Positions 3,679 to 10,748 of a stretch of DNA of 37,722 bases are shown here, one piece after another. The position numbers and the translations under genes were made by a program. The DNA is from Deltaproteobacteria bacterium (GTDB lineage: Bacteria > UBA10199 > SBBF01): NCBI GenBank assembly GCA_016183175.1, contig JACPFC010000002.1, forward strand, positions 1-37,722, in the 5' to 3' direction. The notes beneath the pieces were generated by a model that worked only from the letters and a program-made list of their open reading frames with translations, did not search any database and was not told the origin of the DNA. Position 1 is the first letter of the stretch. Every line of letters starts with the position of its first letter.

Positions 3679-4446
3679 TCAATTTATAAAAATATGATCG
3701 TTGTGATGCTTAAGAAAAGTTGCGTCAGGCACAAAACGATTCGGCAGATTCATTTTTTGTCCCTTATAATCCAGAAAGAAATCTCGTGTCGCCTTGTCTG
3801 ATTTATCATGCAACAATACTTTTGACAAACGGATCTCAAACTCGGCAGTAATTGTCATCAAGCCCCTATCAAAAGCCCTGTCATGAAGCACATTGAGGCA
3901 AAGTCCATTACGGGGATTGACACGATTCTTTTCGTCAACCGACCAAGGCACGATATGACTTGCGTTAAGCAGATCGACAACGGGAAGACCCGTAATGCAA
4001 CATTTAAAATCATACGCCGATAAAACAGCCTTTCGAAAAAATTGCTGATTCACGCGTGCTCGGACAATGGTTTCTCGTTCTTTACCTTCACGAGGTAAAT
4101 CGTCCGTTTTAATATCAGTGACTTGTTCAATGGGTTTATGAAAAGCACCAGCCAAAAACCGCTCACTTTCAAAAGCTAATTTTTCCCAATTGTCATTAAA
4201 CTCCTCCCAAATTTCTTCCTCGCCTTTGGAACCATGAGAAGCTCCTTTGATATTCCTCTTCTTTAACGAGGGATCGAGTCTTGCAAAGTTCGCCAACTTC
4301 CATGAAACCGCCGAAGGGGTCCTGTCTATGGCTTTGGCAAGTTCAATAATTTGAGGATTACGGTTATGAATACTTCCAAAAGAAATTTTACAATAAAGGT
4401 TAAAGGCAAGTATCAGTTCCTCTCTGGTCCATTTGCTGTTACGCAT
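3679..4446 (-). CDS. HNH endonuclease, probable restriction enzyme
   Basis: The 255-residue protein ends in an intact HNH_2-type nuclease domain: CCITGLPVVDLLNASHIVPW (about 165-185), then NPRNGLCLNVLHDRAFDRG and LSKVLLHD. The catalytic His of HIVPW, the Asn of NGLCLN and the His of LHDRAFD are all present. The N terminus (KWTREELILAFNLYCKISFG) and the AVSWKLANFARLDPS segment are typical of HNH restriction endonucleases paired with cytosine methyltransferases. I chose the ATG at 4446 because it overlaps the methyltransferase stop by 8 nt. The partner methyltransferase is truncated, so an active enzyme here would have no protecting methylase in this window. Confidence 0.8.
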   Translation of the reverse strand: MRNSKWTREELILAFNLYCKISFGSIHNRNPQIIELAKAIDRTPSAVSWKLANFARLDPSLKKRNIKGASHGSKGEEEIWEEFNDNWEKLAFESERFLAGAFHKPIEQVTDIKTDDLPREGKERETIVRARVNQQFFRKAVLSAYDFKCCITGLPVVDLLNASHIVPWSVDEKNRVNPRNGLCLNVLHDRAFDRGLMTITAEFEIRLSKVLLHDKSDKATRDFFLDYKGQKMNLPNRFVPDATFLKHHNDHIFIN

Positions 4447-4873
4447 TTGAGATTGTCCAGAGAGTTCTGTCCTTCTCATGGCTGACAAGATTTTTGACAT
4501 TTTCCAGCAGGAAGGCATCCGGCCGTTTGTCTTTCAGGATCCTTTTGATTTCGAAAAAGAGGGTGCCCTGTGTCGGGTCGTCAAACCCGTGAGGTCTGCC
4601 AAGAGAATTTTTCTTTGATACTCCCGAAATGGAAAAGGGCTGACATGGAAAACCAGCCACCAGAATGTTGTGATCCGGTATTTTGGCACTTGCCATTTCC
4701 CTGATGTCACCTGCCGGCATTTCACCAAAGTTGGTTTGATAGGTAAGTTGGGCAAACTTGTTCCACTCAGATGAGAAAACGCAGGTCCCACCAGCCGCTT
4801 CAAACGCGATTCTCATGCCACCGATGCCGGCAAACAGGTCAATAAACTTGAAAGTGTGTAATTGAGGGGCCAT
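4439..4873 (-). pseudogene. DNA cytosine-5 methyltransferase, C-terminally truncated
   Basis: The 144 residues carry the N-terminal half of a Dcm-type methyltransferase: motif I FIDLFAGIGGMR (AdoMet binding, about 10-21), the motif IV catalytic loop GFPCQPFS (about 74-81, with the nucleophile Cys), and motif VI ENVKNL (about 124-129). After VSHEKDRT the frame runs into WTISNA and stops. Motifs VIII-X and the target-recognition domain, normally another 180-250 residues, are missing. The end fuses directly to the start of the HNH gene, which looks like an internal deletion. It is probably inactive. Misassembly is an alternative. Confidence 0.8.
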
Positions 4874-10283: not shown

Positions 10284-10313
10284 TAAGAGCCACCCCTGAC
10301 TAAGGTAATTCCA

Positions 10314-10390: not shown

Positions 10391-10505
10391 CGTCCCGGCT
10401 AGGAATCGAACCTAGGACCGTACCTTAGTCAGAGGTAGGCTCTATCCACTGCCCGCCACACTGCGTGGCGGGTCCGCCAAGTTTTTTGGCGGAAGCTACC
10501 GGGGC
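10391..10505 (-). tRNA. tRNA with 42-bp insertion in the D arm (anticodon GAC; possible pseudogene)
   Basis: Without the insertion (10452-10493) the minus strand folds into a standard 73-nt tRNA. The acceptor is GCCCCGG/CCGGGAC (one C-A mismatch), the D stem GCTC/GAGC with loop AGTGGATA, the anticodon stem TACCT/AGGTA with loop CTGACTA, the variable loop CGGTC and the T arm CTAGG-TTCGATT-CCTAG. The anticodon would be GAC (Val), but position 37 is U, which is unusual, and the D loop resembles tRNA-Arg. With the insertion the D arm is extended by two hairpins. It is either a pseudogene or a tRNA needing removal of the insert. Confidence 0.7.
10452..10493. repeat. Double-hairpin REP-like insertion inside the tRNA
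   Basis: It consists of two 21-nt palindromes head to tail. On the minus strand they are TCCGCC-AAAAAACTT-GGCGGA and CCCGCCAC-GCAGT-GTGGCGGG. Removing exactly these 42 nt restores the D stem and a 73-nt tRNA. A related TCCGCC/GGCGGA element with an inner CCCGC stem lies just before xerC (27437-27473). Confidence 0.75.
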
Positions 10506-10594
10506 ACCAAGTCGATCTCCAAGCAAATTTCATGCCACTTTTTTTCTCCTTCATCTGCGAATTAAACGCATTTGAAGCTCCTCTCCAAAAACCA

Positions 10595-10636
10595 ACCGTC
10601 CGATTTTCGGACGGTACCGTCCGAATTTCGGTCGGT
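10595..10636. promoter_or_regulatory. Candidate sigma54 enhancer (UAS) cluster, copy 2
   Basis: The centre is a perfect 20-bp palindrome (10606-10625) containing GGACGGTACCGTCC. Flanking half-sites ACCGTCCGA (10595-10603) and CGGTCGGT (10629-10636) make four half-sites in alternating orientation. Its centre is 131.5 bp before the -12 cytosine of the sigma54 promoter, within 1 bp of the spacing at the other locus. Confidence 0.65.
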
Positions 10637-10641
10637 TTTGT

Positions 10642-10669
10642 TCGTGGATCGTGGATCGTGAATCGTGGG
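10642..10669 (+). repeat. TCGTGGA tandem heptamer (4 units)
   Basis: Units are TCGTGGA, TCGTGGA, TCGTGAA and TCGTGGG, followed by a decayed TCGTATG. It lies between the enhancer-like palindromes and the CCCTANN array and is absent from the other sigma54 locus. It may be slippage-prone spacer DNA. Confidence 0.7.
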
Positions 10670-10692
10670 TCGTATGTATAACTCTCTGTTTT

Positions 10693-10727
10693 CCCTAAAC
10701 CCTACACCCCAAACCCTACACCCTGCC
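10693..10727 (+). repeat. CCCTANN heptad array, copy 2
   Basis: Five exact heptads: CCCTAAA, CCCTACA, CCCCAAA, CCCTACA, CCCTGCC. As in copy 1 it ends 5 bp before the TGGCAC of a sigma54 promoter. The G-rich strand has five G-runs with 4-nt loops. Confidence 0.8.
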
Positions 10728-10732
10728 GTAAA

Positions 10733-10748
10733 TGGCACGCAATTTGCT
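10733..10748 (+). promoter_or_regulatory. Sigma54 (RpoN) promoter
   Basis: TGGCAC-GCAAT-TTGCT matches the consensus with exact GG-N10-GC spacing. The predicted start is about 10759, giving a 52-nt leader to the ATG at 10811. Confidence 0.85.

What the first reader, a model, noticed from the sequence alone, without database searches (positions are those of the whole stretch)
10391..10505. tRNA gene interrupted in the D arm by a 42-bp double hairpin
Removing exactly 42 nt (two 21-nt palindromes) restores a 73-nt tRNA. Palindromic elements inserted inside genes and RNA genes are known from Rickettsia (RPE family). An insertion in a bacterial tRNA D arm is unusual, and the anticodon GAC with U37 makes the identity odd as well.
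Basis: partly seen in the sequence, partly recalled or inferred. Interest (0 to 1): 0.75.

Follow-up and report, generated by a model that had tools for sequence, protein, structure and literature searches.

The report
tRNA gene broken by mobile hairpins
A tRNA gene in this uncultured bacterium is split by a 42-base pair of DNA hairpins; the same hairpins sit at the same spot of tRNA fragments in unrelated bacterial phyla, often beside a small cutting-enzyme gene, so the broken tRNA is probably a scar left by a little-known mobile element that uses tRNA genes as landing sites.

Summary
Minus strand 10505-10391 is a 73-nt tRNA split after nucleotide 12 by exactly 42 nt, two adjacent perfect 8-bp hairpins. 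ARAGORN and Rfam miss the gene as it stands; ARAGORN calls it when the flanks are joined.

The insert is not unique. Its genome holds 8 such double hairpins, one 41/42 identical elsewhere and one inside the tmRNA. Across 46 genomes of the class, 9 of 29 credible copies lie in tRNA D or T arms. A scan of 84,980 genomes finds the same D-arm insertion (AGCT^CAG) in Elusimicrobia, Nitrospirota, Omnitrophota, a CPR bacterium and Deltaproteobacteria.

There it usually marks a tRNA 5' fragment, followed by a spacer or a small GIY-YIG nuclease gene, then an intact tRNA with the same 5' end. tRNA-linked GIY-YIG proteins cluster in one lineage; in two supported clades, hairpin type and site go with the nuclease.

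Best reading: homing-type GIY-YIG elements integrate into tRNA genes, rebuild the tRNA, and leave hairpins at the insertion point. The window copy is a solo hairpin or collapsed remnant that probably killed an Arg-type tRNA. Not shown: nuclease activity, hairpin movement, transcription of this tRNA.

The parts
10494..10505 (-). tRNA nucleotides 1-12 (GCCCCGGTAGCT): acceptor 5' strand, positions 8-9 and the first 3 nt of the D stem
   Evidence: 5' part matches tRNA-Arg genes of the class
10473..10493 (-). First hairpin (in tRNA sense) TCCGCCAAAAAACTTGGCGGA, 8-bp stem, 5-nt loop
   Evidence: the same hairpin occurs at G000:C66
10452..10472 (-). Second hairpin CCCGCCACGCAGTGTGGCGGG, 8-bp stem, 5-nt loop
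   Evidence: one loop base differs from the C66 copy
10391..10451 (-). tRNA nucleotides 13-73 (rest of D arm, anticodon arm with loop CTGACTA, variable region, T arm, acceptor 3' strand, G73; no encoded CCA)
   Evidence: ARAGORN calls a tRNA only when this is joined to nt 1-12

Best explanation
The 42 nt is one copy of a mobile double-hairpin element sitting at GTAGCT^CAG, the conserved D-arm sequence that serves as landing site for a family of small GIY-YIG nuclease elements. In its full form (seen in relatives, not in the window) the element reads: [tRNA 5' fragment]-hairpin(s)-[short continuation of the tRNA]-GIY-YIG ORF-[complete tRNA with identical 5' end]. So the insertion splits the tRNA gene but a complete tRNA is rebuilt; this is shown by anatomy. 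The likely mechanism (inferred) is that of a free-standing homing endonuclease: the nuclease cuts the D arm (or T arm) of ORF-less tRNA alleles, repair copies in the element with a duplicated tRNA end, and the hairpin at the old cut site stops re-cutting. In the window neither ORF nor rebuilt tRNA is present. It is either a hairpin-only insertion, or the product of recombination between the two copies of tRNA nt 13 onward, which would leave exactly tRNA(1-12)-hairpins-tRNA(13-73). The D stem is split, so this tRNA is most likely a pseudogene (inferred); the mismatch C2-A71 and U37 fit decay.
For: Same double hairpin at the same D-arm site in 4 of 46 class genomes, reversed-pattern control 0, and in 11 stretches of 84,980 genomes over several phyla. 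Most are a tRNA 5' fragment upstream of an intact tRNA with the identical 5' end. A GIY-YIG ORF lies between fragment and intact tRNA in G028, G009, G050 and, with related or other palindromes, in G048, G013, G047, G049, G053, G046, G034, G019, G045, G005. 24 of 100 small GIY-YIG loci lie within 400 bp of a tRNA, about 2% expected. tRNA-adjacent GIY-YIGs cluster in one lineage (21 of 27 members; 1 of 71 others), and the four Asn elements with hairpins at GTAGCT^CAG form a clade, 99/92. The hairpin CCCGCCACGTAGTGTGGCGGG of the Omnitrophota element G050 is letter-identical, loop included, to one in the window's genome. 9 of 29 class double hairpins lie in tRNA D or T arms.
Against: The window locus has no GIY-YIG ORF and no rebuilt tRNA. 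None of the three small GIY-YIG genes of this genome groups with the Asn clade in the tree, as far as placed. Double hairpins also occur outside tRNAs, including the near-identical C66 copy and the tmRNA, so the hairpin can spread without the ORF. Cleavage and homing are inferred, not shown. Some GIY-YIG genomes were chosen because they carry the hairpins.
Confidence: 0.62

Rival explanations
1. Stand-alone palindromic element: the double hairpin is an independent miniature element that inserts into loops of structured sequences (tRNA D and T arms, tmRNA, other hairpins), perhaps through single-stranded DNA or RNA, and GIY-YIG genes merely share its tRNA targets.
For: 41/42 identical copy at C66 in unrelated flanks; a double hairpin at the same tmRNA position in two genomes of the order but with different sequences, and absent from five others; copies inside other intergenic palindromes; most ORF-less D-arm copies.
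Against: Does not explain why tRNA copies come with a duplicated tRNA end and an ORF, nor why hairpin type and site go with GIY-YIG clade. No mobilising enzyme was found: Y1 transposases are in 38 of 46 genomes regardless of hairpins, and the window's genome has only a 70-aa remnant.
Confidence: 0.28
2. The split tRNA is functional: the D-arm hairpins protrude from, or are removed from, a working tRNA.
For: All other stems are intact and no intact copy is in the assembly; the genome's tmRNA carries a comparable insert in a loop and is otherwise complete.
Against: The insert lies within the D stem (12^13), not in the loop; anticodon loop with U37 and the C2-A71 mismatch suggest decay; in relatives the hairpin-bearing piece is a fragment and the working tRNA is a second copy; no Rfam intron match.
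Confidence: 0.06
3. A REP-like palindrome moved by a Y1 (RAYT) transposase.
For: Short palindromes in pairs; GTAG precedes the insert in the tRNA.
Against: GTAG here is host tRNA sequence and is absent at T-arm and tmRNA sites; Y1 genes show no link with the hairpins, and G018 has a hairpin pair but no Y1 match.
Confidence: 0.04
4. Assembly artefact.
For: The source is a metagenome assembly, and hairpins trouble assemblers.
Against: The same site and hairpin type recur in independent assemblies from several studies and phyla; the insert is clean and the flanks match a tRNA to the base.
Confidence: 0.02

Closest known systems
Free-standing GIY-YIG homing endonucleases acting on tRNA genes (phage T6 SegB; PMC13096335)
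   Same: GIY-YIG domain, intronless gene next to tRNA genes; SegB cuts inside tRNA genes at RAWTSGAAC, which matches the T loop, where some of the hairpins here sit
   Different: Here chromosomal, nested in the target tRNA with a duplicated tRNA end and hairpins; not found in viral contigs by the D-arm pattern; the window copy has no ORF
Endonuclease ORFs (mORFs) with a duplicated gene end in fungal mitochondria (Allomyces atp6, Glomus atp6/atp9/cox2/nad3; PMC3630166)
   Same: Endonuclease ORF splits a gene and a second copy of the gene end restores it
   Different: Target is a tRNA, mostly its 5' end, in bacteria; palindromes mark the broken copy
Double-hairpin elements of Allomyces mitochondria and repetitive hairpin elements of sponges (PMC2800124)
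   Same: Short paired hairpins, mobile by inference, no target duplication
   Different: Bacterial, tied to tRNA arms and to GIY-YIG genes; no sequence comparison was made with them
Rickettsia palindromic elements (RPE)
   Same: Palindromes inserted inside genes (general knowledge)
   Different: RPEs are longer, known from Rickettsia and for in-frame insertion in protein genes (general knowledge); this one is 42 bp, in an RNA gene, in other phyla

Membership tests
Free-standing GIY-YIG homing element in tRNA genes | GIY-YIG ORF at or next to the split target gene | tested here: not met
   Not met in the window. Met in at least twelve related loci
Free-standing GIY-YIG homing element in tRNA genes | Nuclease cuts the ORF-less allele | not testable with these tools
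   Needs purified enzyme
Gene-splitting ORF with duplicated gene end (mORF type) | Broken gene end and a complete second copy flank the ORF | tested here: not met
   Not met in the window: no second copy of the tRNA end. Met in relatives
Double-hairpin element (Allomyces type) | Two adjacent hairpins repeated at several places, no target duplication | tested here: met
   Structural likeness only; descent not tested
Rickettsia RPE | Found in Rickettsia, longer than this insert, known from protein genes (general knowledge) | tested here: not met
   42 bp in an RNA gene; relatives G028 and G009 are Deltaproteobacteria MAGs
REP/RAYT system | GTAG or CGTC foot and a Y1 transposase partner | tested here: not met
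   No foot at T-arm and tmRNA sites; only a 70-aa Y1 remnant in this genome and no link in the class
Group I or II intron in tRNA | Catalytic intron core | tested here: not met
   42 nt of two hairpins; no Rfam match other than two tRNAs in the window

The most novel reading that the evidence does not exclude
A so far undescribed family of GIY-YIG elements spreads across bacterial phyla by invading tRNA genes at the D arm (or T arm), rebuilding the tRNA from a carried or duplicated end, and sealing the old cut site with self-complementary hairpins; the hairpins can outlive or leave the element and invade other RNA genes such as tmRNA. The window tRNA is a solo scar of this process.
Probability: 0.5. 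Interest if true: 0.82.

Novelty: new variant of a known kind. Interest (0 to 1): 0.68.

Why it matters
tRNA genes are the classic landing sites of large integrating elements. Here a roughly 100-codon nuclease gene, or even 42 bp of hairpins, does something similar, and the target gene is usually rebuilt. If right, it gives a cross-phylum model of how a minimal selfish nuclease survives in essential genes, explains some tRNA fragments and pseudo-tRNAs in groundwater MAGs, warns that tRNA finders miss split genes, and links hairpin elements to a candidate mobilising enzyme that can be tested in vitro.

Tried and rejected
Orthologue of the window tRNA in the class: none; only Arg-type 5' halves and weak full-length matches to Ile, Arg and Met tRNAs. 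RAYT/Y1 mobilisation: no association. Viral origin: the D-arm pattern is absent from the viral contig collection. tRNA-Val(GAC) identity: the anticodon fits, body and G73 do not. An inventory argument (is this tRNA needed?): inconclusive, since Phe, Asp, Ile(GAT), Ala(TGC/GGC), Val(TAC/GAC) and Arg(TCT) were not found in the assembly, so gaps are likely. Literature: no description of tRNA-nested GIY-YIG elements with hairpins was found in open-access papers; subscription journals were not searchable. The minimum-energy fold of the joined tRNA is not a cloverleaf; I gave this little weight, since unmodified tRNAs are often mispredicted.

Full report
Observation. The minus strand at 10505-10391 reads GCCCCGGTAGCT-[TCCGCCAAAAAACTTGGCGGA][CCCGCCACGCAGTGTGGCGGG]-CAGTGGATAGAGCCTACCTCTGACTAAGGTACGGTCCTAGGTTCGATTCCTAGCCGGGACG. 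The bracketed 42 nt are two abutting 21-nt hairpins, each with an 8-bp perfect stem and a 5-nt loop. ARAGORN and Rfam see only tRNA-Leu and tRNA-Cys in the window. With the flanks joined, ARAGORN calls a tRNA with anticodon GAC. The insert lies between nt 12 and 13, inside the D stem. No target duplication is visible.

Identity of the tRNA. Nucleotides 1-25 are 96% identical to tRNA-Arg(CCG/CCT) 5' halves of the class, including one of this genome at C3:4537. A20 and G73 also fit Arg-type genes. The loop CTGACTA (GAC, U37) does not. No orthologue was found in 46 class genomes. The tRNA search of the genome gave 40 hits and no second copy. Several other tRNA species are also missing, so absence proves little.

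The insert is a repeat. Eight double hairpins of this kind exist in the genome. C66:10049-10090 is 41/42 identical in unrelated flanks. C59:1864-1905 lies inside the genome's tmRNA gene. In an alignment of eleven tmRNAs, G002 of the same family has the clean empty site, while G005 of the same order has a different double hairpin (TCAGCC..GCTGA + TCCGCC..GGCGGA) at exactly the same position. One more copy follows tRNA-Leu(CAG) inside a T-arm-like sequence, GGGGTT^CAAGTCCCC.

Where such hairpins sit in relatives. The pattern for two abutting CCGCC..GGCGG hairpins matches 31 times in 12 of 46 class genomes. Two matches look like plain GC-rich coding sequence (my reading). Of the other 29, six lie in D arms of tRNA genes or fragments (G000, G009, G011, G028 twice, G033) and three in T arms of 3' fragments downstream of an intact tRNA (G005 twice, G000). 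tRNA genes make up well under 1% of these genomes, so this is strong enrichment (rough binomial P about 3e-16). Others sit inside further intergenic palindromes.

Across phyla. The D-arm form AGCT-[double hairpin]-CAG was found in 11 stretches of 84,980 genomes: Elusimicrobia, Nitrospirota, Kerfeldbacteria (CPR), Omnitrophota, an unnamed bacterium and two Deltaproteobacteria. The two Deltaproteobacteria contigs match G028 and G009 in length and content, so the window belongs to a class that holds MAGs of that label. In most of them the split piece is a 12-13-nt tRNA 5' fragment, followed after a spacer by a complete tRNA with the identical 5' end (Lys, Asn, Val, Thr, Ala). Exceptions: in L073 the fragment does not match the following tRNA-Ile, and L074 holds tandem tRNA-Thr copies without their 5' ends. 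In three loci the spacer is a GIY-YIG ORF.

GIY-YIG link. In G028 and G009 a GIY-YIG ORF lies between the hairpin-split tRNA-Asn fragment and an intact tRNA-Asn. Searching GIY-YIG genes without regard to hairpins found the same plan many times with different palindromes: Asn in G048 and G013; Ser in G047 and G005; Gln in G049; Arg in G053; Asp in G046; Met in G034 and G019; Asn and Gly in G045. A 3' mirror form (tRNA, then GIY-YIG, then 3' fragment) is seen with SeC in G047 and Ser in G049. In the Omnitrophota genome G050 the set is complete: 5' fragment with D-arm hairpins, GIY-YIG, intact tRNA-Met, then a further tRNA-Met copy with hairpins in both D and T arms. Its hairpin CCCGCCACGTAGTGTGGCGGG is letter-identical to the one at C66 of this genome, loop included.

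Statistics of the link. 24 of 100 small GIY-YIG loci have a tRNA within 400 bp, against about 2% expected. Some of these genomes were chosen because they carry the hairpins, so the figure is not unbiased; the class members were not chosen so. In a tree of 98 domains, 21 of 27 members of one lineage are tRNA-adjacent and only 1 of 71 others (6 label changes against 20.2 shuffled, 0 of 500). The four Asn elements with hairpins at GTAGCT^CAG form one clade (99/92), and an Arg and an Asn element with the CCTGCC..GGCAGG hairpin at TA^GAGC form another (98/91). Deep forks are poorly resolved. The tRNA-adjacent members keep the GIY-YIG motif and mostly the later arginine and glutamate (sequence).

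How it probably works. Read as an insertion, the full element is hairpin - tRNA(13..) - GIY-YIG - tRNA(1-12), placed between nt 12 and 13, so that a complete tRNA results on its right. This is the logic of endonuclease ORFs that bring a replacement gene end in fungal mitochondria (PMC3630166). The phage GIY-YIG enzyme SegB cuts inside tRNA genes at RAWTSGAAC, which matches T-loop sequence (PMC13096335). Hairpins at the old cut site would prevent re-cutting. Cutting, copying and protection are inferred. Recombination between the two tRNA(13..) copies would delete ORF and rebuilt tRNA and leave tRNA(1-12)-hairpins-tRNA(13-73), which is what the window shows. A direct insertion of the 42-bp unit gives the same result, and the C66 and tmRNA copies show that the unit can occur alone.

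Consequence for the window gene. The D stem is split and there is no rebuilt copy within the window, so this tRNA is most likely dead. The tmRNA, which carries a comparable insert in a loop, shows that stable RNAs may tolerate such hairpins, so function is not excluded.

Judgement. RPE is the wrong relative. The window item alone is a new member of palindrome-in-RNA-gene insertions. The system it points to, tRNA-nested GIY-YIG elements with hairpin-sealed fragments, was not found described in the open literature searched and is best called a new variant of free-standing homing elements.

Noticed in passing
L049 (G000:C59:1554-1973, minus) and L266 (G005:C27:21453-21839): Different double hairpins sit at exactly the same position (CTCGTT^AAACGAC) of the tmRNA in two genomes of one order; five relatives of the order or family lack them.
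   Followed up: yes
L273 (G005:C33:8134-8266, minus): A second, short tmRNA-like sequence with both tmRNA ends but no middle (65.5 bits).
   Followed up: no
L041 (G000:C40:25786-25863): A 3' copy of tRNA-Lys(CTT), identical from the anticodon arm on, lies about 85 bp downstream of the intact gene, with a hairpin in place of its 5' half.
   Followed up: partly
L044 (G000:C38:9577-9650): A near-identical copy of tRNA-His in which the acceptor 5' strand is replaced, about 2.4 kb from the intact gene.
   Followed up: partly
L090 (G001:C39:32599-32623 region): A tRNA of the same family with an 8-nt anticodon loop, called Arg/Ala (tcgc) by ARAGORN; a second 5'-half match lies at G001:C15:32526.
   Followed up: no
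window 10296-10307 (+): CTGACTAAGGTA is an inverted 12-nt copy of tRNA nt 32-43, some 115 bp from the anticodon loop; it could be chance (E 0.12) or the template of the odd anticodon.
   Followed up: no
L274 (G050:C44:55700-56691): Omnitrophota locus with D-arm hairpins, GIY-YIG, intact tRNA-Met and a further tRNA-Met copy with hairpins in both D and T arms.
   Followed up: yes
L046, L047, L048, L140 (G000:C8, C6, C3, C54): Four copies of a longer repeat (GGGGCTCGCGTCGCC-[double hairpin]-CCCTCC) hold one and the same double hairpin.
   Followed up: no
window 10590-10740 and L064 (G000:C32, near 15.9 kb): A composite intergenic repeat (CGGACGGT palindromes plus CCCTAAACCCTACACCC and CCGTAAATGGCAC stretches) occurs next to the split tRNA and next to a GIY-YIG gene elsewhere.
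   Followed up: no
window 3679-4873 (-): A C-5 DNA methylase cut to its first 128 profile positions overlaps an HNH nuclease gene, possibly a decayed restriction-modification locus.
   Followed up: no
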